64,000 nucleotides of DNA from Candidatus Chlorohelix allophototropha (GTDB lineage: Bacteria; Chloroflexota; Chloroflexia; Chloroheliales; Chloroheliaceae): positions 62,001-126,000 of the forward strand of contig NZ_CP128400.1 of the NCBI RefSeq assembly GCF_030389965.1, written 5' to 3'. The notes under the pieces were generated by a model. That model was not told the origin of the DNA. It saw only the letters and a program-made list of their open reading frames with translations, and did not search any database. A program made the position numbers and the translations under genes. Positions 26,267 through 55,691 of the stretch are shown here, one piece after another (the first letter of the stretch is position 1; each line of letters opens with the position of its first letter).

Positions 26267-28501
26267 TTAGGGATTCAAAAAACGAATCGTCCCAACCGCA
26301 ATGGTCAGCAAGCGCGTATCGGGACCGGGCGCAAAATCAGAAGGGCGATTGGCTTTACCGCCTATTTTCAGAGTCAAAATATTCCGACCTGCTTGCAAAT
26401 CCAGCGTTACCAGCACGTTTTGCGGCTCAAGTCTGATGCTACGGCTTCCGTTTGGCAACTTCACCCCGTTCAGATATAAGTCCAGCGAGTGTGCTTCGTG
26501 GAAACTCCATGCGGGGAACTCCAATTCTAGGCGGCGGGGCTGACCGCACCAGAACTCAATCTTTGCCTCGCTCTCCTTAGCCCAGCGATAGACCATGCCT
26601 TTGGGGTCATTCTCCGCCTCATTCCAACTACTTAGAAGCGGGTAGTAGAAGAAAACGTTTTCTGGTACTCCGGTTGGCACTTCAAATACTTGCAAGCCCT
26701 CTTTGGCGTAAACAGGTCCTTGCGGAAACAGACGATAAGCCAACGCCAGCAATTTATCAAGCTGACTGCGCGATTGCACCCGCTCTTCATGAATAATTAC
26801 ATAGCGGGCGTTGAAATAGCGCAGCGTATCGAGAGAAAGCGTCTGCGCTGGCAAAATATCGGGCTTCGGCGCGGTCTCAAAGTTGCGAAACTCGCGAAAG
26901 ATTGGTACACCGTCCAATATAAAGTAAGCCGGATTGCGCGATACATAGCCCCCCAAGAGCGGTTTGCCGTGTTCCATCTGCGCCTCCATATAGGAGGTTT
27001 CGTATTGCGACACGGGCAAGTCGAGAATGGAATATTTAGCCGGGTCTTTTGCCAGTTCGCGATAAAACTGCGGCACATTGTATTCGGTCATCTGGTAGGG
27101 CGCAGGGAAAAGCTCAAACGCCAGCGTAAGGCAGAAAAAACCCGCCAAACTCGCCTGACCTAGTTTGCGCTTGTTCCAGCCAATCTCCAGCGCCAGCAAT
27201 TTAGCCAGACCCCACGCCGCCAGCAAACCTAACGCTAGCAACGCGGACAAAGCGTAGCGCGAAGGCACGCGAGTCACATTCAGTATTGGCATATCAAAGA
27301 TAAGCGAGGCTGGCAAAGGCGGACCGACTTCGACTCCGTTGATGTGCAGCCTGCGACCAAAACTGAGAAGCGCAAATAGTACCGCCACCAACAGCCAAAA
27401 TTCCGCACCAACGTTAATAGTCAATTTATTATGTAAAGTTTTAGGTTGTAATTTATTTCTCAGGATCGGCGCTAGCACAATTGCTACCCCAAGCAAACTC
27501 AATAGATAGACGGTGTAGCCGGGAAAGACGATTTTCTCAATCAGTGTGGCTGTCCAAGGCTTCACCGCCACTTTCAGGGCATTGCCCCACAGCGGCTGAA
27601 AAGGGCTAGGATAGAGATAAGCTAGCAAATCCGCGCTATAAATATTCTCCTCGCGTTTAGGTACGGCGTTAGGGTTGCTGGCAATATCCTGTATTAGCGG
27701 AATAGTAAATGGCAAGGTCAAAAGTACAAAAGCCAGCGCGATTGCCCCCGCTCTGAGAAATAACGGCACGATGGCAGAAAAGGTGCGTCGCCACAAGAGT
27801 TTCCCCGTTAGATACAGCATCAGCAAGACGCTGAAAATTCCCAGATATAACACGAACTGCAAATCGAGGAAAGTATTAAAAATTAGAAATAGCACCGTCA
27901 GGGTGGCATTGCGTACCCATTTCTCTTGCTCGGTCAGGGTTTTGAGCAGGAACAGGATGTAAAAGGGGATGAACTCGGTGGAAATCAGGTTGAGGTGTCC
28001 GAGCAAATGGTCAAAGTTGAAGGTGCTAAAACCATACGCCACCCCTGCTACCAGTCCTGCTCGCCAGTCACCCCACAGCCACAACGCCAGCCGATACGCC
28101 CCGTATGCGCCAAGCGTGAACGATAGCAGCACTATGAAGTTATAAGCGGCAACCGCACCATGTGCTGCCCCACCTAACCAGTCGAAAAGGTATTGCACCG
28201 GCAAGCTCACAAAGCCATTCCAAGCGTTGAGCGCGTGCAAAACCAATCTTGGCTGAATCGGATAAAAGAGCAGGTCGGTCTGGAAAGGGTTTTGTCCGGT
28301 TTCAAGGGCGTGGCGCACCCACCACAGGTTCCAGACCATTTGCCACGAATCCTTGTTATCCTCGCCCGGTACGGCAACCATAAAGCGGACAATCAAAGGG
28401 AAGGTGAACAACAGCGCCATCAAGGCAAAACCGCCCAATATTATAAGCTCGCGCCTAAGCGTGGAAAGTTTAGCGGTAGTTGCCGTTTGCAGTTTCAACA
28501 T
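26267..28501 (-). CDS. Multispanning GT-C-like membrane protein
   Basis: 744 residues. About ten to twelve hydrophobic helices occupy residues 20-480, followed by a soluble beta-rich C-terminal domain of about 230 residues. An early acidic and aromatic loop (GEDNKDSWQMVWNLWW) recalls membrane glycosyltransferases or YfhO-like proteins, but I see no decisive active-site signature. It starts 3 nt after the stop of the upstream GT39-like gene, so the two are co-transcribed. The likely role is in extracellular polysaccharide or lipid-linked sugar work at the membrane; inferred. Confidence 0.75.
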   Translation of the reverse strand: MLKLQTATTAKLSTLRRELIILGGFALMALLFTFPLIVRFMVAVPGEDNKDSWQMVWNLWWVRHALETGQNPFQTDLLFYPIQPRLVLHALNAWNGFVSLPVQYLFDWLGGAAHGAVAAYNFIVLLSFTLGAYGAYRLALWLWGDWRAGLVAGVAYGFSTFNFDHLLGHLNLISTEFIPFYILFLLKTLTEQEKWVRNATLTVLFLIFNTFLDLQFVLYLGIFSVLLMLYLTGKLLWRRTFSAIVPLFLRAGAIALAFVLLTLPFTIPLIQDIASNPNAVPKREENIYSADLLAYLYPSPFQPLWGNALKVAVKPWTATLIEKIVFPGYTVYLLSLLGVAIVLAPILRNKLQPKTLHNKLTINVGAEFWLLVAVLFALLSFGRRLHINGVEVGPPLPASLIFDMPILNVTRVPSRYALSALLALGLLAAWGLAKLLALEIGWNKRKLGQASLAGFFCLTLAFELFPAPYQMTEYNVPQFYRELAKDPAKYSILDLPVSQYETSYMEAQMEHGKPLLGGYVSRNPAYFILDGVPIFREFRNFETAPKPDILPAQTLSLDTLRYFNARYVIIHEERVQSRSQLDKLLALAYRLFPQGPVYAKEGLQVFEVPTGVPENVFFYYPLLSSWNEAENDPKGMVYRWAKESEAKIEFWCGQPRRLELEFPAWSFHEAHSLDLYLNGVKLPNGSRSIRLEPQNVLVTLDLQAGRNILTLKIGGKANRPSDFAPGPDTRLLTIAVGTIRFLNP

Positions 28502-28503
28502 CT

Positions 28504-30816
28504 CTAATTTGCCTTGAGGATGCTCACCGTCCCCACCTCAATTGAGTCGCTGCCATCCGTTAAGGTCAGGCGCGCACCGTTAGGTGGCTCATACATCCCC
28601 ACCTCAATTCTATAGTTACCTTCTGCAAGATTGGCAGGCAACGGCAACGGGTAATCATCTCTGGTAATTTCGCCCGGTCGCCATAACGAGGTAGGGCGTG
28701 TCCCGCCTAGTGGTGGCAAATCCAGTTGGCTGGCAATCTTGCCGTTCTCATCCAGCAAATGTACAAAAACGGTGTAATTACGCGGAGGTTCGTTAATTGC
28801 TTGCCAGTACAGCGCAAGGTTCAAAGTGCCCCCGGCTTGTAACGAATCGGGGTAGTCCGCTCCGATAAGATGAATGTCGTTGCCGAGTTTAACATCAGTT
28901 GCGCGTTGAATCTGGTAATCCTGTAGGTTGCGCGATACCGTTTTCAACGTAGTTCGCAGGATAATAACCCGCGCTCCCGGCTTATCCGTCCCGTTTACCT
29001 CAAAATCCTGTTCGAGTTGCAAGCCCGCCGGACGCGGACCGTCAATCAGGGCGTTGTAGGCAGCTTTAATCGAATCTTTCCCGGTAGTGCGCGACTCCTT
29101 ATGGTATGCCTCACTCAAAACCAGATAGTTAAAGCCATTGGCAGCATACCATTCCGGCGGATATTTCAATGCGCTTCCGCCTTCGAGACGGTAATTATTG
29201 CGCGGCAGCAACTCCACCGAGAAAGGCTCAATATAGAGTTTTGACCCGGCTGGTAGGTTCTTTTCAATGTACTCGGTGGCGCGGACACGGGCGGTTGGCT
29301 GTGCGTTCAAGTTGGCGTGTGTAGCAATATCGATAGCGGGGAATAAAATCACTACCAGACTCAACCCTGCCAGCACAAAACGGTTATAACGAGCAAACGT
29401 TCCCGGCAAATATTTTAGGGCTATTTCCACCAACCACACTAACGCAACCGCCGCGAAAATTGCCAGAAAAGGTATTACCGGCATCAGGTTGCGAGTGAAA
29501 TTCACCTTGTAAGAGGATAATTGCAGGAAGGAAATCAGCGGGAAAGCTAACAGCGTTACATCCTGCTTGAGATGTCGCGCAAAAGCCAACGCGATTCCGC
29601 CTAGCCCTAACCACAGCACCAGCAAATTGTTCTGTCCAAGCGCCTGCAAGTAGAACAGCCAGTTATTTTCGCCTTCGTAGCCGGGATGCCCGCTGTTCTG
29701 GTAATGGTTGATGATTGCGGCAATATCGGTCAGGAAATTTGGCAGATGGAAAAAGATAAAAGGAGAGGAAATAAAGAACCCGGCAAAAGTCCCCACTCCT
29801 GCCAACGGCAAATTCCAGTTCATCCACTTACGAGGGGAACGACCCAACAAGTGCGCCAACACCAACGGCAAAATAATCAGGGCGTTATTATATTTCGTGC
29901 CAATTGCCAACCCGCACAGGATTCCGGCTGCCAGATATAGCCATTTTTTCTCGCTACCTTTAAGGATTGGCAGAATCAACAGGAAGGGTAGAACTGCGAA
30001 AAATGCGCTGGGTACATCGGTGGTAATGTAGCGCGAGTTAATCACATGCAGATAGAAAAATGCCAGAAACAGCCCACCCGTTAACCCCACTTTGCGGTTG
30101 TACCAGCGCGAACCCACCAGAAATACCAGCAGCGCCGTACCCGCACCCAAGATTGCAGTGAGTATGCGCCCCCACAGATAGAAATCGGGTTTGACGGTTA
30201 GTACATCCAGCCCACCCGTTCCGGTGTATTTATCCCCCGCCACACCCGCCAGAAAACGCACAGCAAAAACCCCGCTTTGCAGATAAGTGTACAGGCTTGG
30301 GTAAGTAAAAGCCTGTCGGTCATTGTCAGGCAGCGCAGGGTTACGGTAATCGAGTGGGTCAAAATTCCCGGTTTGGACGATATGTAGGGCGCGATCTGCC
30401 ACCGCCCACTCGTCCACCTGCTCCAGATAGGGCAACCCAAAGTTTATACTCCACAAGCGCAATGCCAAAGCCGCCAATGTTAGCCCAATTACAGAAACAG
30501 CCGCACGTACTTTGACATTTTGCCATAGCAACAGGGGAGTTTTAAGCAGTTGTGCAATACCAAACGCCTCATACAACCGACCGCCCACCGTCACTACCAA
30601 CGCCAACCCCATTACTCCAAACAGCAGTTTGCGTCCGCCCGGAATCCGGTCATATAATTCCCAGTTTTTACTTATATATAGAAAGAGTAAAGCCGCAAAT
30701 GATAGCGCAATCCCTGCGTTCAAGATTTTCACGGGTAGAAGTTTGCGGGTAGGCTTTTTACCAGATTCCTTATCTTTATCGGGTTCATTTTTGATGGGCT
30801 TGGATTCCGTTTGCAA
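28504..30816 (-). CDS. PMT/GT39-type membrane glycosyltransferase
   Basis: 770 residues. A charged, Lys-rich N-terminus is followed by many transmembrane helices (first near residues 31-50 and 64-80). The first extracytoplasmic loop carries Asp135-Glu136 (LEQVDEWAVADRAL), the metal/donor-binding acidic pair of GT-C enzymes that use lipid-linked sugars. SRYITTDVPSAF and GLAIGTKYNNALI are also typical of the family. A soluble beta-rich domain forms the last about 250 residues. It is first of a two-gene unit with 26267-28501. Substrate unknown. Confidence 0.82.
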   Translation of the reverse strand: MQTESKPIKNEPDKDKESGKKPTRKLLPVKILNAGIALSFAALLFLYISKNWELYDRIPGGRKLLFGVMGLALVVTVGGRLYEAFGIAQLLKTPLLLWQNVKVRAAVSVIGLTLAALALRLWSINFGLPYLEQVDEWAVADRALHIVQTGNFDPLDYRNPALPDNDRQAFTYPSLYTYLQSGVFAVRFLAGVAGDKYTGTGGLDVLTVKPDFYLWGRILTAILGAGTALLVFLVGSRWYNRKVGLTGGLFLAFFYLHVINSRYITTDVPSAFFAVLPFLLILPILKGSEKKWLYLAAGILCGLAIGTKYNNALIILPLVLAHLLGRSPRKWMNWNLPLAGVGTFAGFFISSPFIFFHLPNFLTDIAAIINHYQNSGHPGYEGENNWLFYLQALGQNNLLVLWLGLGGIALAFARHLKQDVTLLAFPLISFLQLSSYKVNFTRNLMPVIPFLAIFAAVALVWLVEIALKYLPGTFARYNRFVLAGLSLVVILFPAIDIATHANLNAQPTARVRATEYIEKNLPAGSKLYIEPFSVELLPRNNYRLEGGSALKYPPEWYAANGFNYLVLSEAYHKESRTTGKDSIKAAYNALIDGPRPAGLQLEQDFEVNGTDKPGARVIILRTTLKTVSRNLQDYQIQRATDVKLGNDIHLIGADYPDSLQAGGTLNLALYWQAINEPPRNYTVFVHLLDENGKIASQLDLPPLGGTRPTSLWRPGEITRDDYPLPLPANLAEGNYRIEVGMYEPPNGARLTLTDGSDSIEVGTVSILKAN

Positions 30817-34052: not shown

Positions 34053-34925
34053 TTATTCCTCTATAGTAGCCGTTCCCAAGGTCAAGCCGCTGATTACATA
34101 CCTACCAAGCAGATAAAAAAGCGCCAGCACGGGTAAAATAACTATCAGAGCAGTTGCCGCCAACGGTCCCCACGCAACCCCGCTTGCCCCGCGCATGGCG
34201 TATAACGCCATTGCCAGCGTTACATTGTGGGGTGTGCTAATAAACACCCAACCGAGCGCAAATTCAGACCACGCTAAGGTAAAGCTGATAAAGCCCGCCA
34301 CCGCTACCGAAGGCAAAATGAGCGGTAAGGTTATGCTACGGAAAACTCTGGTTATCCCCCCACCTTCAAGCATCGCCGCTTCTTCAAGTTCGGGTGGCAC
34401 AACCTGAATCGCGTTACGAACCGTCCAAATAGCGAATGGTACTGCAATTGCACTATAAACCAAAATCAATGAAAGAAGTGAATCCCTGATTTTCAGGTCA
34501 TTCAGGAAAATAAAGAAAGGAGCGGTCAAGCCTGCCGGAGGCAAGGTAAGTAATACCAGCGTCATAAAAAGAGCCGGTTTACGTCCGGGAAAGCTATAGC
34601 GGGCAAAAGCATAACCCGCCGTAATGCCACATACCAACGATAGCAAGGCTGTACCACCTGCCACAATCAGGCTGTTTCCAAGCAACCCAAGCAGAGTAGT
34701 GCTGGTGGTAGGACTATTCCAAGCAAGCTGGAAATTTTCGGTACTCCACTGTACCGGCACTAATCCGCTATCTTTAGGTCTGCCGGTACCGCTACTAATA
34801 CCGCTCAAAGTGCCGTCAAAAGCCAGACGCAACATCCACAGTACCGGTAACACCACAAAAAGTGAAGCAAACGCGAGCATTAGTTGGGTGCTAAGTTGTC
34901 TCCGCCATGTCATTTTCTCAAACAT
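34053..34925 (-). CDS. ABC sugar transporter permease, MalG-like
   Basis: 290 residues, six helices; the inner-membrane channel half of a carbohydrate importer. The EAA loop is present (EEAAMLEGGGITRVFRSITLPLI). ATG 34925 is supported by AAGGAGT 7 nt upstream, making it overlap the preceding gene by 8 nt; a longer reading from 34946 is less likely. Its partner is the C-terminal part of the fused gene at 34918-37185. No ATPase or solute-binding protein is encoded nearby, so these must be supplied elsewhere. Confidence 0.88.
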   Translation of the reverse strand: MFEKMTWRRQLSTQLMLAFASLFVVLPVLWMLRLAFDGTLSGISSGTGRPKDSGLVPVQWSTENFQLAWNSPTTSTTLLGLLGNSLIVAGGTALLSLVCGITAGYAFARYSFPGRKPALFMTLVLLTLPPAGLTAPFFIFLNDLKIRDSLLSLILVYSAIAVPFAIWTVRNAIQVVPPELEEAAMLEGGGITRVFRSITLPLILPSVAVAGFISFTLAWSEFALGWVFISTPHNVTLAMALYAMRGASGVAWGPLAATALIVILPVLALFYLLGRYVISGLTLGTATIEE

Positions 34926-37185
34926 ATTGGACTCCTTCCACCACATGGGTACGCCGATTAAATATCCAGATAAAACCGATTACAATTGTCATTATCAATA
35001 TATTTATCATGGCGGCGACAGAATAGCCGTTGTTATAACGTATCACAGCCCACCCCGCTAGAGATAAAGTGGTAGTTCCGGTTTGATCGGTATTATTGAA
35101 GAGCATCAGCGGTATATGGAAAGCGTTGAATAACAACACGCCTCGCAACAGTACGCCGGAAAGGATTGTTGGACTGATGAGCGGCCAGATGATTAAACGC
35201 CACATATTCCAGCGTTGTGCGCCATCCACTCTTGCGGCATCCACCACCTCGCTAGACACCGCCCGCAAGGCTACGGTTGAAACCAGTAGCATAAAGGGGA
35301 AGGCAACCCACACTCCCACAATTACCATAACCCAGAATGACTTATTAAAGGATATTCCTTCGGCGGTAAATTCCAGAATTCCGGCAAAAGGAGAAAGCCG
35401 CCAACTTTCCAATTGATTTGCCAGCGGTTTAACGAAACCAGCAAGGTCTATCAAAGGTGTGGAAGCAGATAACCAGCTATTGGAGTTACGCGCCTCCGGA
35501 GGAATTGCCAGCAGATTATTAATCCCTCCGTTATAATCATCAAACAGAGTTGTCCATATTAACGCTCCCACAAATTCGGGTATTGCCCACGGCAGAATAA
35601 AAAGGGTGCGCCAGAACTGACGACCTAATACGCCCTTGCGCTGCAATAACGAAGCCAGCCACAAGCCGAAACCGCTTGCCAGCGTCATAGTCACAACCGT
35701 CCAAAGAATATTAAAACGCAGGACAGCAGCGAATTTGTCCCACATGAATATTCCAAAAAATGCGCCAGTCCCGGTATAAATCAACGGCTTGTTGAGCAAA
35801 TAATCGGGCGGCATGCCCACCAACCCTCGCCCGAATCCAGCTACCAGCGCACCTGCCCCATCCCTGAGATTCTCAATCCTGAAAGTGGTAGTAGCCAGCG
35901 CGGTTTGCAAAAGCAGTGGATATGCCACAATTAAAGTGAGTAGCAAAAGTGAGGGCAAAAGCCAGACTAAGGCAGCCCTCCACGAACGGTTAGATTGTTT
36001 TGGAGTGGTGCGCCATGTGCGCCATCCTCGCCAAAGATTTACGCCCGTATCGGTTAACCAGCGCGAAGCCATCAACGAAACGGGAACAGTTAACGCCAAT
36101 ATATATTGAGGCCATTTGGTGGGCCAGAACAACAAAAAAATCAGGTTAGAAGCGAACCATAGTACAATCAAACGGTTCTGCCAGTTTGTTTTGAACATGC
36201 GCCAGACTGCCAGCAAACCAAAAACTGTAAATAGCCCATCCATGAGTAACGGAAAGGTTTCCGGGTGGTTTTGAGGTAGCCACGGAACGGCAACCAGCAG
36301 CCAAATTACCGGCTGTGTCCAGCCAAACCCTGAAGATTCTACATGAGAGCCGGTGGCGTAATTGGCATGGAAAGTCACTGCCGCTTGTAGTCGCCCTATT
36401 GGGTCGAGCCACAAAGCAGGGTCAGCGAGATAGAACACTGACAGCGCAAGCCCTATCCACAGTAATACCTTTCGCCATGATTTACGATCTCGCCATAGCA
36501 TCCAGATGAGAATGGCGAATCCTGCTGCCGCATAAGGAAACTTGCTGGAAGTGCACAAACCAAAAAAGATGGCAGAAAGCCACCACCATTTATCGCCACT
36601 TCGTTTGGAGCGCAGCAAAAGTAACAAAGTGAGAGCAGCGAAAAGGCAAGGAATCGCTTCCAGCATAACCTGTGAAGTGTACTTTATATGCCACGAGTTT
36701 AAGCCAATCAAAATCCCTGCCAACGGGTTATAAAGCGCTACTACCCCGGCAGTCAATGCGCCAATAGTAGCGCCAAAAGTACGTAGCGGTTTAATCTTCT
36801 GAGCAATACCGGGAGCATCTGGTAACTTATCGCCAACCGGTATCTTAACCAGCTCATTGTAACTATCAGAGCCTTGCGTAAAATAAAGTACCGCACCGTA
36901 TAGGAGCTTGATCATTGGCGGGTGTTCATAGTTAAACCGCTCGTTGACGATACCAGCGATATCTCCGGCAGCAATATAGCGAGCATACAACTGCCCACCG
37001 TATAAGTAATCATCTTCATCGTAATCAGGCGGTAGATAATCTGCGGCTCGTAACCTAACTAGCAACGACACTATAAAGATTGCAGTTGCCAAGCCAACTT
37101 TCAGTCCCAAATATAGCCTAGCACGCGAGGTTGCAACCAATCCTAACGAGGATTTAACCTTCTCAGGGGTTAATATAGTCGCCAT
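34918..37185 (-). CDS. Fusion of PMT-like glycosyltransferase and MalF-like ABC permease
   Basis: 755 residues in one uninterrupted frame. Residues about 25-400 look like a GT-C/GT39 membrane glycosyltransferase: an acidic first-loop motif at 54-60 (DYDEDDY), ERFNYEHPP (82-90), SWHIKYTSQVMLEAIP and many helices. Residues about 405-755 are a MalF-type permease: entry helix with LLPSLLLLTLIVAYPLLLQTAL, and the EAA loop EVVDAARVDGAQRWNMWRLI. AGGAGC precedes ATG 37185. The downstream MalG-like gene overlaps its stop, confirming the permease half is functional context. Such a fusion is not one I know. An assembly or annotation artefact is unlikely, as no stop or frame change separates the halves. 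Confidence 0.82.
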   Translation of the reverse strand: MATILTPEKVKSSLGLVATSRARLYLGLKVGLATAIFIVSLLVRLRAADYLPPDYDEDDYLYGGQLYARYIAAGDIAGIVNERFNYEHPPMIKLLYGAVLYFTQGSDSYNELVKIPVGDKLPDAPGIAQKIKPLRTFGATIGALTAGVVALYNPLAGILIGLNSWHIKYTSQVMLEAIPCLFAALTLLLLLRSKRSGDKWWWLSAIFFGLCTSSKFPYAAAGFAILIWMLWRDRKSWRKVLLWIGLALSVFYLADPALWLDPIGRLQAAVTFHANYATGSHVESSGFGWTQPVIWLLVAVPWLPQNHPETFPLLMDGLFTVFGLLAVWRMFKTNWQNRLIVLWFASNLIFLLFWPTKWPQYILALTVPVSLMASRWLTDTGVNLWRGWRTWRTTPKQSNRSWRAALVWLLPSLLLLTLIVAYPLLLQTALATTTFRIENLRDGAGALVAGFGRGLVGMPPDYLLNKPLIYTGTGAFFGIFMWDKFAAVLRFNILWTVVTMTLASGFGLWLASLLQRKGVLGRQFWRTLFILPWAIPEFVGALIWTTLFDDYNGGINNLLAIPPEARNSNSWLSASTPLIDLAGFVKPLANQLESWRLSPFAGILEFTAEGISFNKSFWVMVIVGVWVAFPFMLLVSTVALRAVSSEVVDAARVDGAQRWNMWRLIIWPLISPTILSGVLLRGVLLFNAFHIPLMLFNNTDQTGTTTLSLAGWAVIRYNNGYSVAAMINILIMTIVIGFIWIFNRRTHVVEGVQYV

Positions 37186-37469
37186 CTTATTGCTCCTGAT
37201 ATTCGGCTTCCTGCACTCAAATCATTAGCAATATTGTATGGCACTTACTACAAAAAAGCATCAACCCAAAGAACTAAATTGAACCGATGATAAGTTTTAC
37301 TGTTGCCAAACCCTAAAATTTTTGCAAGCTCAGTTTTGCACATTATTAATTTAATAGCAGGAGGTAAAGGACAGTCGGTCGAGTATCGCACACTCAAAAC
37401 CGCTTTTATATAATGAACCAGAAGAACTGAACAACTAAAAAGGGTTTGGTAAGGTGTATACTTAAAAAC

Positions 37470-37814
37470 ATGACAACACCTAGAAAAAAGTATTCACCCA
37501 CATTTAAGTCTCAAAGAGTGCAAGAAGTGCTGGAAGGTAATAAAACCGTTACCCAGATAGCTTCTGAATATGGTATTCATCCGAATATGCTCACTAAATG
37601 GAAACAACTGGCTCTAAAAGGTCTGCCACAATCCTTTGATGAGCGTACTCAGAAGCAAATCGCGCTGCTGACCGCACAGTACGAACAAGAAAAAGAACAA
37701 CTTTACGCCGAAATAGGTCGCCTGACTACACCGCTCAGGTGGTTAGGAAAAAAAAGTGAAGCAGGCTTTGCCCAGGTCGGTCAGATTAAGCCTAATCGAA
37801 ACCCAAAAAGCTGA
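37470..37814 (+). CDS. IS3 transposase OrfA (copy 2)
   Basis: A 114-residue HTH subunit identical in plan to copy 1 (ATG 37470). One residue differs: NKTVTQIAS here, NKTLTQIAS in copy 1. Confidence 0.88.
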   Translation: MTTPRKKYSPTFKSQRVQEVLEGNKTVTQIASEYGIHPNMLTKWKQLALKGLPQSFDERTQKQIALLTAQYEQEKEQLYAEIGRLTTPLRWLGKKSEAGFAQVGQIKPNRNPKS

Positions 37815-38625
37815 ACTTTCACTCTCAAAACAAAGTGAGTTGCTAGGAATTAGCCGTTCCAGTTTGTACTACCGCTCAGTAGCACCAACCGAACGAGAAA
37901 TTGAGCTCAAACACCGAATTGATGAGATTTACACCGTTTACCCTTTTTATGGATATCGGCGAATTCATCAACAATTACTGCGGGAAGGCAAGCACCTCAA
38001 CCGCAAAACGGTGCAAAACTATATGCGGGAGATGGGGCTAGAAGCAATCTATCCTGGTCCTAATCTTTCGAAACGAGATCAAAAGCAGCGGGTATATCCC
38101 TATCTCTTAAGGAACCTGGCTATAACCAGACCCGCTCAGGTATTCGGTACCGACATCACATATATCAAGCTCAAACACGGTTGGCTTTATCTGGTGGCTG
38201 TCATCGACTGGTACAGCAGATATGTGGTAAGTTGGGAATTATCTGATACTTTGGAAATCGATTTTGTGCTTAGAACTACCGAGCGAGCGTTGGCGAAGAT
38301 AAAACCCGAGATCTTTAACAGTGACCAAGGTAGTCATTTTACCAGTCCTAAATACACTGCTTTGATATTGGGCGCAGGTGTAAAGTTAAGTATGGATGGA
38401 CGTGGGCGAGCACTAGATAATGTTTTCACCGAAAGGCTCTGGCGTTCCTTAAAATATGAGTGTGTTTATTTAGCACAATTTGAGAACCCCAAAGAAGCAA
38501 AGCTAGGGATTGGTGAGTATTTCGATTTCTACAATAATACTCGACCTCATCAGGCTTTGAAATATCAGACACCGGCTCAGGTTTATTTCAATACCGTGAC
38601 ACCAGTAATTATGTTAAAGAGCTAA
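37756..38625 (+). CDS. IS3 transposase OrfB (copy 2)
   Basis: A 289-residue DDE subunit with the same sequence as copy 1 at the protein level. It starts at GTG 37756 in the +1 frame relative to orfA, after an A8 run. The catalytic residues are in FGTDITYIK, NSDQGSHF and NVFTERLWRS. Appears functional. Confidence 0.9.
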   Translation: MKQALPRSVRLSLIETQKAELSLSKQSELLGISRSSLYYRSVAPTEREIELKHRIDEIYTVYPFYGYRRIHQQLLREGKHLNRKTVQNYMREMGLEAIYPGPNLSKRDQKQRVYPYLLRNLAITRPAQVFGTDITYIKLKHGWLYLVAVIDWYSRYVVSWELSDTLEIDFVLRTTERALAKIKPEIFNSDQGSHFTSPKYTALILGAGVKLSMDGRGRALDNVFTERLWRSLKYECVYLAQFENPKEAKLGIGEYFDFYNNTRPHQALKYQTPAQVYFNTVTPVIMLKS

Positions 38626-38634: not shown

Positions 38635-39783
38635 CTAGCTATTTAACATTATTAGTTCTATAGAAAGGACTGTATCACTCCTTAACCAAGCTTTTATTTT
38701 TGTCTTGACAAACTGGGTCATTTCATTTTGCCCACTTATGTGTCCGTAGATTGTATCTGTGGGTAGGTTTACGCCAAATAAATTAAGGGCATTATCCTGT
38801 TTATTATCTCCATTGGTAGCACGCGACTGTAGAATTTGCATCATCTGGGCAGAAGCCTTTTTACTAACTATATTCCCATCTACTAAATTATGCAGAAATT
38901 GTGCGCAATCTTTTGCCGAAGTGTAATTTTCATTATTAGGGTCTGGGATACCCAACTTACGCTGCAAAAGAGTTTCGCCATAGCCATTATTTTTGGCAAA
39001 TTCATTTACTTTCTTGAATCCGCCTAACTTGTCTATAAGCAGATTAGCTGCCGTATTATCGCTATGCACCAGCATATTATAAAGTATATCTTCGTAGGTG
39101 AATTTAGTACCTACCATCGTGGCTTGGTTCATTATCCCTGTTCCTGATACCTGATCGGATTTCTTCAGAATATAAGTATCTTTGAGGTTTAACCTATCCG
39201 CTTCGTCTTCTTCATACATAGAAGCAGCAATCCACAACTTGATAAGGCTAGCTGACGAAACCCTAACACGCTCATTTACCGTTACAGAACTCCCAGTAGG
39301 CAATAGCACTATGGCATTTGCACCTTTAGGCAAATTGCCAAATACTCGACCGAGGTTATCAATCTCAGCAGGGTCTTGTGTTGTGCTCGGTGTCGGCATA
39401 GTTGTTACAATAGGTCCAGATGCTGCTATGGTTGTGGCAAGCGCAAGTTTGTTAGCCTCAACAGCAGTGGTGGTAACGTTTGGTTTCACCTCAGTGGTAG
39501 TTGCACCAGCATTTAATAAATTGGTAGTTGTCCTAGCTATAAATGATGAGGTAGGATTAGAGCTAAAGTTGTTACCCTGAGTAATCAGAAAAACAACAAC
39601 CACACCTAGCGATATTACAGTTATCGATAGAATTACAAGCAAAATCCCATTGCCTTTTACTTTAGTTTGAGATAACCCAGAAGAGTACGCGACTGTATTA
39701 TGCGCAAATAAAGCTGTTCCGCAATAACTGCAAAAACGATCATTTGGCGGAATTACATTCTGGCATTTTAAGCAGATTGACAT
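38635..39783 (-). CDS. Zinc-ribbon, TM, class A beta-lactamase-like serine hydrolase; C-terminus replaced by IS3
   Basis: 382 residues. Cys4 zinc ribbon (C4, C7, C18, C21), one TM helix (about 47-69), a Thr-rich linker (70-140), then a penicillin-binding/beta-lactamase fold outside the cell. S179-L-I-K182 is the SxxK nucleophile motif and SDN (241-243) the second motif. The third motif is atypical (GHISG in place of KTG). From about residue 353 the sequence (MTQFVKTKIKAWLRS) is encoded by IS3 copy 2, so the last strand and helix of the fold are lost. It begins 1 nt after the FtsK-like gene stops, last of the type VII-like cluster. It probably acted on peptidoglycan or beta-lactams; the present form is likely impaired. 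Confidence 0.85.
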   Translation of the reverse strand: MSICLKCQNVIPPNDRFCSYCGTALFAHNTVAYSSGLSQTKVKGNGILLVILSITVISLGVVVVFLITQGNNFSSNPTSSFIARTTTNLLNAGATTTEVKPNVTTTAVEANKLALATTIAASGPIVTTMPTPSTTQDPAEIDNLGRVFGNLPKGANAIVLLPTGSSVTVNERVRVSSASLIKLWIAASMYEEDEADRLNLKDTYILKKSDQVSGTGIMNQATMVGTKFTYEDILYNMLVHSDNTAANLLIDKLGGFKKVNEFAKNNGYGETLLQRKLGIPDPNNENYTSAKDCAQFLHNLVDGNIVSKKASAQMMQILQSRATNGDNKQDNALNLFGVNLPTDTIYGHISGQNEMTQFVKTKIKAWLRSDTVLSIELIMLNS

Positions 39784-39784
39784 A

Positions 39785-42700
39785 TCAAACCTTCCGATTC
39801 AAATTATCACTTACTTGCTTCAACCAAGCTGCTGCTGGAATGTTGTATGGTCGGAATTTCTCCAATCGTCCGTCTTCTTCATCAAAAAGGTAAGCCCGGT
39901 GCGACCCAAGTTTGCTTGCAACAGGCGAATCCAACAAATTTGATGAATCTTCTGCGCTCATTTGCATTGCTACGCGCATCCCGAACTCACGAAGAACCCG
40001 ACGATCAAGGCTACGGTTCAGATTGTTCCAGTTATCGCACCATACAAGGGTGTGTATTCCAACCTCAGGTCCTTCCTTTAAAATAGTGGTGAAATTCTGG
40101 ATGGGGGAAGACTCCTTCGACTCCTCATTGCCATACCCTCCATAGGAACCAAACCCGCTATCATCTTGCCGAATTTCGTTGGCACGATGTAGCCCGAAAA
40201 CCGCTAGGAATTTATCCGGTCCGGGTGCGCCTTCTACCGCACTCCTACGTTTTACCTCAGCCGCAAGCACTGAAAGCATCCCCTGCAATTGGGAACGTTT
40301 ACCCAGCTTCAACGAGTGGGGTAAAAGTGCTTTCAATTGATCAAATTGATCAGAATAGGGTGAATCTACAGTTCCGAAATTTAGCAGGTAGAAATAATCA
40401 CTTCCAACCGGAGAAAGTTGGGCTGCAAGGCTAACCATGTTGGTCATAAACATGCCCAACGCCAGTTCTTCGTTTTTACTCACTATCAGTAAATTACTGC
40501 CACTCTGTCTTCTGAAATTAGCTGCCACCGAGTCTTTTATCGCAATCGGTTCTCCAAGCCACCCACTTACAGTTCGTCCTTTAGGTGCATAAGCAGTGGC
40601 TGAAAGCAGTTGCTGGAGCTGACGGTTTTTCTCTACTTCAGCAGGTTGATCCCCCTCAAAGACTAGTTGTGCGCCAAGTAGGTTTTCCTTTTTAGCCTTT
40701 TCAAAAATCTGTTCTAGGTACTGAGCCTGTTTCTCAGAGGAAAGGAAAGCTACCTGAAAATTTTTATTTCCTTCTACCCTTCCGTTTTCCGCATTATAAA
40801 TAGCTTCACCTGACCGGGAGAGAAGACGGGCTGCCGGATTATCATCAGCTAGAATGAGGCGGGAATCGGCTTCGCTACACTGTAGAGCGACTCTCACTCC
40901 CATCTGATCAATTGTACTGCGGGGTAAGGTATATGACCCGGTTAGCGTTTGAGTACATAACACCAGATGAATGCCAGCACTACGACCTTGTTTTACCAAT
41001 CGGTCTATTATCTGGGCGGCTCGGGATGAAATCTGATCATCTTCGGTGAAAAATTCCTGGAATTCATCTGCTATAAGCAATATGCGGGGCATAGCCTTTC
41101 CGGTAAGCTTTCTATACTGGGGCAGGTTTTGTACCCCACTGTCTCGGAATGTATCCCCGCGCCACTGCATTTGTGTATCCAAACCCTGCAAAACGCTCAG
41201 CCCAAACTCCCGCTCACTTTGGATTGCAATAACTCTAGCATGGGGTAGTTGGTGCTTCGCGTAAATCTTGAATTCCACACCCTTCTTAAAGTCTATGAGG
41301 TAAAGCTGTACTTCTTCGGGGCTATACTTGAGCGCTACGGAGGTAATCAGGGTATGAAGCAGAGAAGATTTTCCGGAACCTGTACGCCCCACCACCAATG
41401 CATGGTGCGCTGTTCCGCTGCCGCCAAACTCAAGTTGCTGGGATTTTTTGCTATCTGCCGGACCAAGCGCTGCATTAAATATTTCATATTTCTTGTCCTG
41501 CCACCATTCTTGGAAAGGCGGACAGATGTTTTCAAAAGGAACTACCACCTTACTGGCAGTTTGGGCTTTCTCCCCTACAGTTTTGGTTATTTGATCAAAA
41601 AGAGCATTAGAGGGAGGGTTGTCCAATTCCAAAGGAAATTCTTTGAAATCATTATCCTGCATTACAAAGTGTTTGCCGTTCCACTCTATAACAGTGGCGG
41701 ATTGTTCCAAATCGGAAAGAGTAAAACCATGCGGCATAGGCTTTCCGGGGTCCACCACAACCACTGTATATACTCCACAGCGAGGTCCGTTTTGGGCAAT
41801 ACTTACCAGACGGCGGGCGGCTGCTTCGCTGAAGTTGGCAGGAAAATCAAAAACCACCAATAACCGGTATGGCTCTATTACTGAAGCTATAGTATTATAT
41901 TCCTCAATATTTTTATACTGATTGCTCAGATATTTCTGTATCACATTCTCCATATGTTCGGAAAGATCCGCTAGACGTTGCTCAAGATGCTGTGGTTCTG
42001 TCCAAGCTTTTCCGTTAACCAGCTTGGGGTCATAATCTGATAGCCGTATCAGGGGCGCTACATTCTGACCCAACCCCACCGGGTCCAGAAAAGTGAAAAG
42101 CAATTTGCCGGGCTGTGTGCTGGCCAATAAGCGTAGTAAAAGAGACTGGATGGATTGTACCGCTTTAGTCTTTGCAGTGCCTGTGGCTTTGAAAACTAGC
42201 GTGCGGTTTCCCGTGAAAGGTATTAAAGCAGGTGTAGTCAGATTTAATTGCGGCTCCCCAATCCTGAACATACCCAAACTAACAACTTCCGGTATCTTTT
42301 GGGAGGCATTCCAGCTATTCCACACAGAGCTATTCCATGCAGGTGAAAGTACGTTAATTTGGTTACTAAAATCATCAATAGCAGGGCAGGCGCGGGCGAC
42401 ATGCTCCCGAAAAGAGCGCTCGGCTTTATCTAATTCTCGGGTATTTTGTTCTTGCGCGGCTGCTTGTTGGTTTTGATAAGCGGTTTTGGCGCTATTCAAC
42501 CGATATTGATGATCAGTTTTAAAGCCAGCTAATTTATTGTTGTATGTATTCTGGTTCTGGTCCGACATAATCTTGTGCCAATATTTCGCATCAGCCAGGG
42601 CTTGCACAAGCTTGCGGTATTCTAATTTATTAGTACCACTGCTGACGATACCCCAAACTACCAGCAAGATAACTTCAACCACAAAAGCCGCCACTACTAC

Positions 42701-43243
42701 TGGCACATTAAAATCTTGCCTGTACGAATAATAATTCTGAGGAGGGCGTGTAAGAATCCCAATACCAAACGGTAAACCAAAAAAACCTCCAAGTATAAGC
42801 AGCGCAAGGATTGTAGTAAGGCAGGAGTTAGCTTTTTTACCGGCAAACTTTTTGTTAGCAACCTCCTCGGCAATTTGTCTGCATTTTTCTATTTCTCGAT
42901 GGGGATCCGAGTTCGAGCGCGGGTAAGTGTTTTGGGGCTTAATCTTGTTTAGTGCAGGCTGTAGGATAGAAGGGGCGCGATTATACTGCTGCTGCACCAT
43001 ACCCAATAAACCTGCCGCTTGCTGCTCCACCTGTTTTAGAGCTTGTTCGGCATAAGCTTCGTCCTGCTTGAGTTGTTTTTCAGCAGCTTCTTGGGCTTGT
43101 TTATAATTGAGATCGGCATTATCTTTTGCCTGTTTCAAGCGGGTTTGCGCTTGGCTACGCTCATTGTTCAGGCTCGCAACCGGGTTAACATAACCGTTCT
43201 TTAGCAAAGCACGCTGACGAGCAAGCAGAGCAGGTTCCGACAT
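39785..43243 (-). CDS. FtsK/SpoIIIE-type ATPase of a type VII-like secretion system (EccC/EssC-like)
   Basis: 1152 residues, the presumed motor. Residues 1-140 are a Gln/Ala-rich coiled coil; two TM helices follow (about 142-165 and 178-200) and a second coiled coil (235-290). Then come three RecA-like modules. The first (about 320-560) lacks a clear Walker A. The second (about 590-850) has Walker A GRTGSGKSS near residue 619 and Walker B ILLIADEF near 724. The third (about 900-1140) is degenerate (VSKNEELALG). One active ATPase with degenerate partners is reminiscent of EccC/EssC, where substrates bind the terminal module. The start follows GGAGG. WXG100-like genes lie immediately upstream. 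Confidence 0.88.
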   Translation of the reverse strand: MSEPALLARQRALLKNGYVNPVASLNNERSQAQTRLKQAKDNADLNYKQAQEAAEKQLKQDEAYAEQALKQVEQQAAGLLGMVQQQYNRAPSILQPALNKIKPQNTYPRSNSDPHREIEKCRQIAEEVANKKFAGKKANSCLTTILALLILGGFFGLPFGIGILTRPPQNYYSYRQDFNVPVVVAAFVVEVILLVVWGIVSSGTNKLEYRKLVQALADAKYWHKIMSDQNQNTYNNKLAGFKTDHQYRLNSAKTAYQNQQAAAQEQNTRELDKAERSFREHVARACPAIDDFSNQINVLSPAWNSSVWNSWNASQKIPEVVSLGMFRIGEPQLNLTTPALIPFTGNRTLVFKATGTAKTKAVQSIQSLLLRLLASTQPGKLLFTFLDPVGLGQNVAPLIRLSDYDPKLVNGKAWTEPQHLEQRLADLSEHMENVIQKYLSNQYKNIEEYNTIASVIEPYRLLVVFDFPANFSEAAARRLVSIAQNGPRCGVYTVVVVDPGKPMPHGFTLSDLEQSATVIEWNGKHFVMQDNDFKEFPLELDNPPSNALFDQITKTVGEKAQTASKVVVPFENICPPFQEWWQDKKYEIFNAALGPADSKKSQQLEFGGSGTAHHALVVGRTGSGKSSLLHTLITSVALKYSPEEVQLYLIDFKKGVEFKIYAKHQLPHARVIAIQSEREFGLSVLQGLDTQMQWRGDTFRDSGVQNLPQYRKLTGKAMPRILLIADEFQEFFTEDDQISSRAAQIIDRLVKQGRSAGIHLVLCTQTLTGSYTLPRSTIDQMGVRVALQCSEADSRLILADDNPAARLLSRSGEAIYNAENGRVEGNKNFQVAFLSSEKQAQYLEQIFEKAKKENLLGAQLVFEGDQPAEVEKNRQLQQLLSATAYAPKGRTVSGWLGEPIAIKDSVAANFRRQSGSNLLIVSKNEELALGMFMTNMVSLAAQLSPVGSDYFYLLNFGTVDSPYSDQFDQLKALLPHSLKLGKRSQLQGMLSVLAAEVKRRSAVEGAPGPDKFLAVFGLHRANEIRQDDSGFGSYGGYGNEESKESSPIQNFTTILKEGPEVGIHTLVWCDNWNNLNRSLDRRVLREFGMRVAMQMSAEDSSNLLDSPVASKLGSHRAYLFDEEDGRLEKFRPYNIPAAAWLKQVSDNLNRKV

Positions 43244-43266
43244 AGTAGAATCCTCCGTCGTTAAAT

Positions 43267-43482
43267 TTATTTTACGTTGCGTTGAGCTTGATTTATCACT
43301 TGCGCCAAATTTGCCAATTCACGCTGAGCTGCCAGCGACAGAGGTTCCAGAGCAGACCAATAAGCCGTTTCAAAATCTCGCCGAGCTTTGTCGTCCCAAA
43401 CCGTTTTAGTTTGTTCCCAACATTGGGCAAGAATTCTCCAAGAGTTCTCTAGCTCCTCTTTCGTACCTGATAGGCTTGACAT
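43267..43482 (-). CDS. Small WXG100-like helical protein
   Basis: 71 residues, two amphipathic helices around a central turn with Trp29-Asp-Asp (TVWDDKARRDFETAYW) where WXG100 proteins have W-x-G, and a Phe/Tyr pattern following it. Strong AAGGAG ribosome site. It lies 23 bp upstream of the FtsK-like ATPase gene and 15 bp downstream of the coiled-coil/GNAT gene. By position and shape it is a secreted or structural EsxA/B-type partner; shorter than the usual about 100 residues. Confidence 0.75.
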   Translation of the reverse strand: MSSLSGTKEELENSWRILAQCWEQTKTVWDDKARRDFETAYWSALEPLSLAAQRELANLAQVINQAQRNVK

Positions 43483-43497
43483 ATAACGTGTCTCTCC

Positions 43498-44553
43498 TTA
43501 AAAATGTAGTGTTTTAAATATACTTCTGCCGTTGTCCCGAAGTTGATAACCCCGGCTAAGGCACTGTTGAAGGATATTGGGATCGCTAGGTGTATCGCCA
43601 TATATTTCGCGCACACCCCACTGAAGAGCAATTTCCTCCACCCGATCAAGCAGGGCATCCTCTATCCCTGATTGACTGAAGCTAGGTACTGGATCAATAT
43701 CTTGAAGGCGAACTCGATCAACTATTCCGGTATAAGCATCTCGCTCAAGTAAAACATTCGCTTGCCCTGCATTGCCTCTTCCGGGTAATGCTTGGGAACT
43801 GCCAAGCCCTTGCTTATTAAAAACCTGTATCATATACTGATCCCCGGTTGGGAAAGTACGCATAACTAGACTCCTGCCCTGAGCATCTTGCCAAGTGACA
43901 GTGCTGAAGCCTTTCGAAGTCGCGTTTTTGCTTGAACCGATTCCAGCAGTCAACCCTGCCCCAAGCCCTCCGGCGCTAAGGGCGCTACCATTGCTTTCTG
44001 GCATAAACCCACCTGAAACGCTCGCGGATTCAGTGGCTTGAGAACTGCCGCCGGGTAAACTCTCGGAGGTGAAGCCGGTCAATATGCTGATTTTCTGTTC
44101 CAGTTGCGCCGTTGCTTTGGGAAGCTCGCTTTGCAAATGATTGGACAAGCGACGGGCTACTTTGTCGAAATCGTCGTTGGCTAATTGCACCTGTTTATGC
44201 CACTGCTGAACTTTCTTCAGTTCTTCCTGGGTGCGATACAACTCTTGACGGGCATTTTCAATGGCAGCCTTTTGGGCAGTGCAATCAGGGCGGTGAAGGT
44301 TCCCATTCGAATCGTAATAGCCGCTGGCTTCACAAGCTGCAAAAGCTGCAAAAGCTCGTTGAACAGCCTCTTCTTTCCGGCGTAGCTCACTTTGCAAACT
44401 GCTCTCACGCTCCTCCAACCTACGCAGGGTATTCCGCGATTCTTGGAGGGCTGCGCTCAAAGCCTGCGTTGCTTCATTGGAGTAACGGGCAAGAGCCGCT
44501 TTGATATCTCCAAGAGCCTGTATTGATTTGACACTTGCCCCACCTGAACTCAT
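43498..44553 (-). CDS. Coiled-coil (LXG/WXG-like) protein with GNAT-like C-terminal domain
   Basis: 351 residues, no signal peptide or TM helix. Residues 1-165 are long helices with heptads (SRNTLRRLEERESSLQSEL), like the helical export domains of type VII substrates. Residues 166-215 are a Gly/Ser-rich linker. The C-terminal part has a beta segment (VTWQDAQGRSLVMRTFPTG) and then a stretch like the end of a GNAT acetyltransferase (IEDALLDRVEEIALQWGVREIYGD ... GYQLRDNGRSIFKTL). It lies between two WXG100-like genes, each within 15 bp or less. It may be a secreted effector with an enzymatic C-terminus or a structural component. No obvious immunity gene follows. Confidence 0.75.
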   Translation of the reverse strand: MSSGGASVKSIQALGDIKAALARYSNEATQALSAALQESRNTLRRLEERESSLQSELRRKEEAVQRAFAAFAACEASGYYDSNGNLHRPDCTAQKAAIENARQELYRTQEELKKVQQWHKQVQLANDDFDKVARRLSNHLQSELPKATAQLEQKISILTGFTSESLPGGSSQATESASVSGGFMPESNGSALSAGGLGAGLTAGIGSSKNATSKGFSTVTWQDAQGRSLVMRTFPTGDQYMIQVFNKQGLGSSQALPGRGNAGQANVLLERDAYTGIVDRVRLQDIDPVPSFSQSGIEDALLDRVEEIALQWGVREIYGDTPSDPNILQQCLSRGYQLRDNGRSIFKTLHF

Positions 44554-44562
44554 GTTATTCTC

Positions 44563-44835
44563 CTATCGCTGGTTCAGGAATTCACGTAGTCGCTGCGCTT
44601 TCCGCATCAGGAACGGCGCTTGCTGCTCGGATGAGCGAATAAATTGCTGTAGAACTCGCATTGTCTGCTCGAACTCCTGCGCGTATTTGCTATGTTCTTG
44701 GTCGCGCCATGTTTCGCCCAACCGGGAAAATTGCCCGTTCATATTACTGACCCCGCTTCTCATCTGCTCGGTAAAGTTCTTCAGTTGCTGCACAAAGCGT
44801 TCAATATCCTCTGGATTAGCGATTACTCCTGACAT
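44563..44835 (-). CDS. WXG100-family protein (EsxA/B-like)
   Basis: 90 residues, helix-turn-helix hairpin. Turn motif Trp43-Arg-Asp45 (GETWRDQEHSKYAQEFEQ) fits the WXG100 pattern with Asp for Gly, and the Y-x-x-x-F that follows resembles the bipartite export signal. In known systems such proteins form dimers and are exported by the EccC/EssC ATPase. Good AAGGAG site; 9 bp before the next gene. The strongest single marker that the cluster is type VII-like. Confidence 0.88.
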   Translation of the reverse strand: MSGVIANPEDIERFVQQLKNFTEQMRSGVSNMNGQFSRLGETWRDQEHSKYAQEFEQTMRVLQQFIRSSEQQAPFLMRKAQRLREFLNQR

Positions 44836-44872
44836 AAGAATTCTCCTTTTCTGTTCTAATAAAAGCTCAAGC

Positions 44873-45913
44873 TTAATTCAGCGCATATACCGTAAAGTTC
44901 GCATATTTAGTAGTAGTCCCGATAGTTGAATTGTTTGAGTACAACCCGGATGCAACTTTCACAGAACCGCTTACCATTTTTTCACCTGTATTCAAGGTGG
45001 CTATATACTGGTTGTTAAGGTAAAAATAGGCATTTGCACCGTTTACGTAAAGCACTAATCTATTAGTACCGCTTGAGGCTGTATTCATTTGGGGTAGGTT
45101 ACCTGTGCTTATTGATTTGGCATTGCCCCATGTAAGTTCCCAGTAACTGTTAGAAGAAACAATCAAGCGATACTGCTCATTTCCAGTTCCAATATCTCTA
45201 AACAACAACCCATAATCCCAGCCTTGCCCAGCCTTAACAGTTGGATTAGTGAAAACCACATCTACAAGCAGATCACGTAAATAAACCCCTGAGCTATAGG
45301 TTTCAACACCTGTCTTCGAGCTTTGGGTCAGGCTGCTGCTGTAGGGACCGTAAACCTTGCGAGCGCGCGAATCAAGCGGCGCCAAGATAGACCAAATCGC
45401 GCTGGCAGTGGCAGTAGGGATGGCAATAGCCGTCGCAGTGGCTTGAGCCTGAGCAACTGCGGTAGCGGTGGCTTGCGTTTGTGCGGTCGCAGTAGCTTGA
45501 GCCTGAGCAACTGCGGTAGCGGTGGCTTGCGTTTGTGCGGTAGCAGTGGCTTGCGCCTGAGCAACTGCGGTAGCGGTGGCTTGCGTTTGTGCGGTAGCAG
45601 TAGCCTGTGCCTGAGCAGCGGTAGCAGTAGCGTGCGCCTGAGCTTCAAGAAACCGCTGATATTCCATTGCTTGAGCCGTCGCGGTAGCGTTTTGCTTCCT
45701 GGTGTTCTCACTGCTAACACCAATGGCTATTATAGAACCTACCAATACAACAACGGGCACAACAAGCCACAGCCATGCCACCGAAGTGCGTTTCGCTTTG
45801 GTTTGAGTAGTTTGGGTTGTGTGTGCTGCCTGTGCCATTTGTTTACCGCACTCTGCACAGTAGCGGTTGATTTCAGGATTAACTGTGCTACAACTTGGAC
45901 AATTACTGACCAT
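44873..45913 (-). CDS. Zinc-ribbon TM protein with ATA-rich repeat stalk and jelly-roll-like domain
   Basis: 346 residues. Zinc ribbon (CPSC...YCAEC), TM helix (about 46-68), then a low-complexity Gln/Ala/Thr stalk of 18-residue units (residues about 75-165), then a C-terminal beta-sandwich (about 175-346; YGLLFRDIG...YRLIVSSNSYWEL ... NRLVLYVNGANAYFYLNNQYIATL) like DUF1080/concanavalin-type lectin folds. A paralogue without the stalk is at 48514-49314. Presumably envelope-anchored with the lectin-like domain outside. Confidence 0.8.
   Translation of the reverse strand: MVSNCPSCSTVNPEINRYCAECGKQMAQAAHTTQTTQTKAKRTSVAWLWLVVPVVVLVGSIIAIGVSSENTRKQNATATAQAMEYQRFLEAQAHATATAAQAQATATAQTQATATAVAQAQATATAQTQATATAVAQAQATATAQTQATATAVAQAQATATAIAIPTATASAIWSILAPLDSRARKVYGPYSSSLTQSSKTGVETYSSGVYLRDLLVDVVFTNPTVKAGQGWDYGLLFRDIGTGNEQYRLIVSSNSYWELTWGNAKSISTGNLPQMNTASSGTNRLVLYVNGANAYFYLNNQYIATLNTGEKMVSGSVKVASGLYSNNSTIGTTTKYANFTVYALN
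45441..45602 (-). repeat. Three exact-length 54-bp tandem repeats (stalk of 44873-45913)
   Basis: Units start at 45441, 45495 and 45549 and differ at only a few positions; a degenerate part-unit follows to about 45650. They encode Q/A/T-rich 18-mers and probably vary in number between strains. Confidence 0.85.
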
Positions 45914-45990
45914 TATTCCATCGCTTTCTAATCAAGATTGGTATATAAACAAGCGCAACATAAAAGGCACAATTCAGCCACCCGGTACTT

Positions 45991-47238: not shown

Positions 47239-47265
47239 ATATTACCGGGTAGCCTTCTTTGTTCT

Positions 47266-48477: not shown

Positions 48478-48513
48478 GTTTGACCTCTACATTAGCTAAA
48501 TAAGATCCTGAAT

Positions 48514-49314: not shown

Positions 49315-49323
49315 AACGTTATG

Positions 49324-50711: not shown

Positions 50712-50735
50712 TTTTCTCTGCTTTCGTTGTGCGAC

Positions 50736-51938: not shown

Positions 51939-51962
51939 TTCTTCACCTACTTGTTAAGACGA

Positions 51963-53777: not shown

Positions 53778-53825
53778 GATATAAGCCTCCTAGTCAGGAA
53801 TAGATTGACGAGTATAAGTTGAACA

Positions 53826-55682: not shown

Positions 55683-55691
55683 GCGACTCAC

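What the first reader, a model, noticed from the sequence alone, without database searches (positions are those of the whole stretch)
34918..37185. Glycosyltransferase-ABC permease fusion
One frame encodes a PMT-like GT-C domain followed by a MalF-like permease with its EAA loop, directly coupled to a MalG-like gene. It would tie lipid-linked sugar transfer to sugar transport in one polypeptide. I know of no described example.
Basis: partly seen in the sequence, partly recalled or inferred. Interest (0 to 1): 0.65.

Follow-up and report, generated by a model that had tools for sequence, protein, structure and literature searches.

The report
Sugar transferase fused to sugar importer
One bacterial gene really does join a membrane enzyme that attaches sugars outside the cell to one half of an ATP-driven sugar importer; the same joined gene recurs in about two dozen other Chloroflexota genomes, so it is a conserved and apparently undescribed design, though what the two halves do for each other has not been shown.

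Summary
The finding is real. ORF 37185-34918(-) encodes one 755-aa protein. Residues ~20-395 have a Pmt/ArnT-type GT-C fold (VIA Z 24-26) with an intact DE/EHPP motif. Residues ~397-751 are a MalF/SugA-type permease (Z ~21) with its EAA loop, joined by a positively charged cytoplasmic linker. A dedicated MalG gene overlaps its end.

It is not an assembly artefact. The same in-frame fusion occurs in over 20 Chloroflexota genomes at 33-56% identity. In trees, the fused permease domains (100/99) and their MalG partners (100/98) each form one clade. Eight sampled loci sit inside maltodextrin operons (e.g. SBP-MalF-MalG-GH13-FUSION-MalG-GH13). In a sister GT clade, a separate GT gene follows a different MalF-MalG pair, so the association probably arose twice.

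All 24 aligned fusions carry W533 and E537 where E. coli MalF has sugar contacts Y325 and S329, and lack N376 and N440. They are probably not plain maltodextrin importers.

Most likely it is an active glycosyltransferase built into a CUT1 importer served by the genome's single MalK-type ATPase. The acceptor, perhaps the importer's Pro/Thr-rich binding lipoprotein, is inference. Genome: matches 'Ca. Chlorohelix allophototropha'.

The parts
34918..37185 (-). GT-C / MalF-type permease fusion gene, 755 aa (start 37185, stop 34918-34920)
   Evidence: conserved in 24 aligned fusions
36001..37185 (-). N-terminal GT-C (PMT/ArnT-like) glycosyltransferase domain, residues 1-395, about 10 TM helices
   Evidence: Pfam PMT_2; VIA-align Z 24-26 to Pmt4, Pmt1-Pmt2 and ArnT over residues ~20-395
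36907..37026 (-). First extracytoplasmic loop with D54/D56-E57-D58-D59-Y60 and E87-H88-P89...K93 motif, residues 54-93
   Evidence: D56-E57 in all covered fused, split and stand-alone relatives
35971..36048 (-). Cytoplasmic linker, residues 380-405, net charge +6 (mean +5.4 over 24 fusions)
34921..35970 (-). C-terminal MalF/SugA-type CUT1 permease domain, residues 406-755
   Evidence: BPD_transp_1; MalF profile hit E 1e-37; Z ~21 to SugA/MalF
35575..35595 (-). LPWAIPE, residues 531-537: W533 and E537 replace E. coli MalF Y325 and S329; invariant in 24 of 24 fusions
35161..35256 (-). EAA coupling loop region, residues 644-675
   Evidence: sequence; conserved in A1/A2
34053..34946 (-). Partner MalG-type permease (probable start 34925); all fusion-linked MalG form one clade 100/98

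Best explanation
Shown by sequence and model: a conserved single polypeptide in which a 10-TM GT-C glycosyltransferase of the PMT/ArnT kind, active-site loop outside the membrane, is fused through a short cytoplasmic linker to the MalF half of a CUT1 ABC importer; its dedicated partner is the overlapping MalG gene. Inferred: the fused MalF and MalG form the permease heterodimer, energised by the genome's single MalK-type ATPase and fed by a binding protein encoded elsewhere, and the GT domain is catalytically active with a polyprenyl-phosphate sugar donor. Inferred, weaker: the fusion keeps the enzyme next to its extracytoplasmic acceptor, most likely the transporter's own lipoprotein binding protein (Pro/Thr-rich linker, like known Pmt acceptors) or a glycan handled by the transporter, whose substrate is probably not plain maltodextrin. 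The 0.55 is for 'active GT plus working importer subunit in one protein'; I put the binding-protein acceptor at about 0.3.
For: Two-domain protein with both folds. Same fusion in over 20 genomes. Fused permeases one clade 100/99 and their MalG one clade 100/98, so a dedicated pair. D56-E57, H88-P89, R135 and K215 conserved in nearly all covered fused, split and stand-alone GTs, so the enzyme looks active. EAA loop retained. Charge pattern fits 10 TM + 6 TM with GT loops outside and EAA loop inside. Association seen again without fusion: SBP-MalF-MalG-(GH13)-GT in the Chloroflexia f2 genomes and others, with a different MalF lineage. Eight fusion loci lie in maltodextrin operons. One MalK-type ATPase in G000. 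Cognate SBPs have P/T/A-rich linkers, and S. coelicolor Pmt glycosylates ABC binding lipoproteins and a permease (PMC6593405).
Against: No activity data. P/T-rich linkers are general among the SBPs of these genomes, so they do not point to this GT. In f13 genomes the pair lies between prfA and prmC, and in Chloroflexia it stands alone, without maltodextrin genes. No dedicated SBP identified for the window's transporter; the best orphan candidate (C2:1490688) also occurs in relatives without the fusion. One genome keeps the permease without the GT. Relative placement of the two domains in the model is uncertain (pTM 0.58).
Confidence: 0.55

Rival explanations
1. Recycling or vectorial metabolism: the GT builds or remodels an envelope glycan, and the attached importer takes back the sugar or oligosaccharide released there, as LpqY-SugABC recycles trehalose in mycobacteria. 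The fusion serves to channel substrate.
For: The closest solved relatives of the permease half include SugA of LpqY-SugABC, a system considered to be potentially involved in recycling cell-wall components (PMC8603345). The permease sugar site is rebuilt with invariant W533/E537, as expected for a substrate other than maltodextrin. Lipobox-bearing GH13 amylases and SBPs lie beside many loci.
Against: The neighbours in operonic cases are maltodextrin genes rather than envelope-glycan genes; no acceptor or hydrolase common to all loci was found.
Confidence: 0.25
2. The GT-C domain is no longer an enzyme but a structural or sensory module of the permease, like the extra N-terminal TM helices and P2 loop of E. 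coli MalF.
For: E. coli MalF also carries an N-terminal extension before its core; the fused GT is short, with no C-terminal extracytoplasmic domain.
Against: The DE motif and other polar active-site positions are invariant in the fused clade and shared with unfused relatives; a purely structural module would be expected to lose them.
Confidence: 0.13
3. The permease half does not import; the MalF-MalG-MalK module uses ATP to drive or gate the GT (a transporter turned mechanical driver).
For: Sugar-contact residues N376 and N440 replaced and S329 changed to Glu in all 24 fusions.
Against: EAA loops intact in fused MalF and MalG; F436 and N437 equivalents are kept; two loci (f114, f122) have an SBP gene directly upstream, consistent with import.
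Confidence: 0.06
4. Annotation or assembly artefact: two genes joined by a sequencing error.
For: None found.
Against: Same in-frame junction in 24 aligned sequences from many genera and in a closed genome.
Confidence: 0.01

Closest known systems
MalFGK2-MalE / SugABC-LpqY type CUT1 sugar importers
   Same: Permease fold over residues ~397-751 (Z ~21), EAA loop, MalG partner, shared MalK-type ATPase; nearest paralogues are the maltodextrin MalF of the same genomes
   Different: Carries a whole GT-C enzyme at its N-terminus; sugar-contact positions changed (Y325W, S329E, N376A/G/S, N440Y/H)
Protein O-mannosyltransferases (Pmt1/2/4) and ArnT, GT39/GT83-type GT-C enzymes
   Same: GT-C fold over residues ~20-395 (Z 24-26), DE motif in the first outer loop, HPP-like motif
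   Different: No C-terminal MIR or periplasmic domain; a transporter subunit follows instead; only 12-15% sequence identity in the structural alignments
Stand-alone GT-C genes linked to MalF-MalG in Chloroflexia f2 genomes and others (L042-L044, L046, L052, L086, L087)
   Same: Sister GT clade (100/100); next to or near SBP-MalF-MalG with or without GH13
   Different: Separate gene; ~300-aa C-terminal extension, with Reg_prop propeller repeats detected in L042 and L083, instead of a permease; its neighbour MalF belongs to another lineage
Pmt glycosylation of ABC binding lipoproteins in Streptomyces (PMC6593405)
   Same: Links a PMT enzyme to ABC-importer components as acceptors
   Different: There enzyme and transporter are separate, and the enzyme is general

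Membership tests
CUT1 (MalF-type) ABC importer permease | BPD_transp_1 domain with MalF-like core fold | tested here: met
   Pfam E 4e-19; MalF profile E 1e-37; Z ~21
CUT1 (MalF-type) ABC importer permease | EAA coupling loop | tested here: met
   EVVDAARVDGA...WP in window; conserved in A1 and in the MalF alignment
CUT1 (MalF-type) ABC importer permease | MalG-type partner and MalK-type ATPase in the genome | tested here: met
   MalG adjacent and a clade of its own; one OB_MalK ATPase
CUT1 (MalF-type) ABC importer permease | Cognate solute-binding protein | tested here: inconclusive
   None in the window; an orphan 33% match to the L085 SBP at C2:1490688, also present in relatives lacking the fusion
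Maltodextrin-specific MalF | Sugar-contact residues Y325, S329, N376, L379, G380, F436, N437, N440 (roles recalled from published E. coli structures) | tested here: not met
   F436/N437 kept in 24 of 24 and G380 in 23 of 24; N376 and N440 lost in all, L379 kept in 3; W and E at 325/329
GT-C glycosyltransferase (PMT/ArnT type) | GT-C fold | tested here: met
GT-C glycosyltransferase (PMT/ArnT type) | Acidic motif in first extracytoplasmic loop (DE in Pmt) | tested here: met
   D56-E57 in all covered rows
GT-C glycosyltransferase (PMT/ArnT type) | Transfer from a polyprenyl-phosphate sugar to an acceptor | not testable with these tools
   needs biochemistry
Protein O-mannosyltransferase (Pmt proper) | Mannose to Ser/Thr of a secreted protein | not testable with these tools
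   Pfam matches PMT_2 rather than PMT; acceptor unknown

The most novel reading that the evidence does not exclude
Vectorial glycosylation: the GT domain acts on the very molecule that the attached importer binds and moves (or on its binding protein in each transport cycle), so that glycosyl transfer and ATP-driven uptake are coupled in one machine with a purpose-built sugar site (W533/E537).
Probability: 0.15. Interest if true: 0.85.

Novelty: new variant of a known kind. Interest (0 to 1): 0.62.

Why it matters
A fusion kept in about two dozen genomes, plus a probably independent operon linkage, is strong genetic evidence that a PMT/ArnT-type glycosyltransferase and a CUT1 sugar importer work together, a link not found in the papers searched. 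It would connect surface glycosylation with sugar uptake in Chloroflexota, offers a natural fixed complex for structural work, and marks a permease subfamily whose substrate is probably not the annotated maltodextrin.

Tried and rejected
Frameshift or assembly artefact: rejected. Apparent split genes in G743: the GT ORF on one contig and the permease ORF on another share 23 identical residues at the contig ends, so it is a broken fusion. Dedicated SBP by co-occurrence: the L085-type SBP is not specific to fusion genomes. Thr-rich SBP linkers as proof of the acceptor: they are general in these genomes. Sequence search of the GT half in PDB: no hit; only the fold search found it. In-window PMT paralogue as motif control: it aligned poorly in the first outer loop and was uninformative there. 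Plasmid tblastn: only ordinary permeases matched, none covering 80% of the query. Literature: four searches for GT-permease fusions, GT39 with ABC transporters, or Chloroflexi maltodextrin operons with a glycosyltransferase gave nothing relevant. Occurrence outside Chloroflexota could hardly be tested: the one wide genome scan used exact peptide patterns and found only 2 of the known cases.

Full report
Observation. The window has one open reading frame at 37185-34918 on the minus strand, 755 codons. Pfam finds PMT_2 (residues 169-258) and BPD_transp_1 (505-745) in it, both above their cut-offs; NCBIfam's nearest model for the permease half is MalF; the following ORF is MalG-like.

Identity of the genome. 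G000 has 6.09 Mb in five contigs, C1 2.96 Mb, C2 2.45 Mb, C3 375 kb. These are the replicon sizes of 'Candidatus Chlorohelix allophototropha' L227-S17, a closed genome (PMC10972752). The window lies on the 2.45 Mb replicon.

Two real domains. AlphaFold2 with an alignment of 24 fusions gave mean pLDDT 75.5, with most of the GT half between 85 and 97, and pTM 0.58, so the relative placement of the halves is not reliable. Structural comparison: model residues ~20-395 align to Pmt4, Pmt1-Pmt2 and ArnT with Z 24-26, and residues ~397-751 to SugA and MalF with Z about 21. A profile of the fusions hits E. coli MalF at E 1e-37. Charge counts over 24 fusions fit an N-in topology with about ten helices, a cytoplasmic linker of mean net charge +5.4, then the permease with its EAA loop inside.

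Catalytic signature. In the first outer loop D56-E57 is present in all 21 fusions that cover it, all 8 operon-linked separate GTs and all 7 stand-alone GTs; H88, R135 and K215 are nearly universal too. By knowledge of the family, the acidic pair in this loop is the catalytic motif of Pmt-type enzymes. The GT half therefore looks active; activity is not shown.

Conservation of the fusion. Search of genomes found the in-frame fusion in two Anaerolineae MAGs, in 10 of 400 sampled Chloroflexota including G000, in about 20 of 396 sampled Anaerolineae-class genomes, and in further genomes of the window's own class: G759 intact, G788, G777 at a contig edge, and G751 broken by a frameshift. In the window's own order it is in 1 of 5 genomes. 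Two apparent exceptions: G743 is a fusion cut by a contig end, since the two pieces share 23 identical residues; G525 has the permease with no GT trace within 3 kb upstream, a probable loss or assembly fault. The query fusions are 33-38% identical to the window's; G759 is about 50-55%.

Evolution. In a maximum-likelihood tree the 24 fused permease domains are one clade (100/99), sister to the maltodextrin MalF of neighbouring operons and of G000's own maltodextrin locus at C2:379-383 kb. The MalG proteins next to fusions are likewise one clade (100/98). The GT domains fall in two clades (100/100): fused ones with a few stand-alone genes, and operon-linked separate genes. The separate genes sit beside a different MalF lineage, so the link between this GT family and MalF-MalG most likely arose twice. 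That is the strongest evidence that the pairing matters.

Neighbourhoods. Eight sampled fusion loci, from five families, lie in or beside maltodextrin operons, for example L038: ROK, SBP, MalF, MalG, GH13, FUSION, MalG, GH13. In five f13 genomes the pair lies between prfA and prmC, and in the window's class it stands alone. In L085 and L072 an SBP gene precedes the fusion directly; in L072 that SBP is itself a fusion of Peripla_BP_4 and SBP_bac_8. G000 has one MalK-type ATPase, C1:2569868, and 12 SBP_bac_8 proteins. The orphan SBP at C2:1490688 is a candidate partner, but relatives without the fusion also have it.

Substrate. Aligning to E. coli MalF and taking its published maltose contacts from memory, the maltodextrin-clade MalF keep N376, L379 and G380 (10 of 10 each) and N440 (8 of 10). 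All 24 fusions have W at 325, E at 329 and A/G/S at 376; 23 have Y and the window H at 440; F436 and N437 stay. The fused transporter has a uniform site of its own, so it probably moves something other than plain maltodextrin.

Mechanism. Shown: architecture, conservation, intact motifs, dedicated MalG. Inferred: active GT with polyprenyl-phosphate donor, and a working importer sharing the MalK-type ATPase. Weakest: the acceptor. The lipoprotein SBPs have Pro/Thr/Ala-rich linkers like Pmt acceptors, and Streptomyces Pmt glycosylates ABC binding lipoproteins and a phosphate permease (PMC6593405); but such linkers are general in these genomes, so this is suggestive only. Recycling of envelope sugars is the main rival.

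Novelty. No paper in the searched library describes a GT-C/ABC permease fusion; absence from that library is not proof. Each half belongs to a known kind, so I call the whole a new variant of a known kind: a CUT1 permease with a built-in glycosyltransferase.

Noticed in passing
window 11478-12657 and 37446-38625: Two nearly identical IS3-like elements (two ORFs, 122 and 289 aa); the second lies directly upstream of the fusion gene, so whatever normally precedes the fusion may be displaced.
   Followed up: partly
window 38635-55691 (-): Run of zinc-ribbon proteins with an FtsK/EssC-like 1152-aa ATPase (39785-43243), Ser/Thr kinase, PP2C-like phosphatase, FHA-like and VWA-like proteins; looks like a phospho-regulated secretion-like cluster (read by eye from the translations).
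   Followed up: no
window 26267-30816 (-): Two more large multi-helix membrane proteins, one a PMT-family protein (PF02366) and one without any Pfam match.
   Followed up: partly
L071 8763-11153 and L080 3536-5953: Maltodextrin-type binding lipoproteins with two complete SBP domains in tandem in one chain.
   Followed up: partly
L072 8947-11259: 771-aa lipoprotein directly upstream of a fusion gene that joins Peripla_BP_4 to SBP_bac_8, i.e. two different classes of sugar-binding protein in one chain.
   Followed up: partly
L042 7402-9510 and L083 7756-9867: Separate GT-C genes of the sister clade carry a C-terminal Reg_prop beta-propeller; the L042 gene stands beside SBP-MalF-MalG, whereas no MalF-MalG was found beside the L083 gene.
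   Followed up: partly
L033-L037: In five genomes of one Anaerolineae family the fusion-MalG pair lies between prfA and prmC, within a translation-factor neighbourhood (UvrC, PrfA, PrmC, Sua5, TsaD).
   Followed up: partly
L147 6506-12195 (G751): The fusion is frameshifted in the permease half, and its MalG is broken and displaced about 2.7 kb downstream; looks like decay, an insertion or low-quality assembly.
   Followed up: partly
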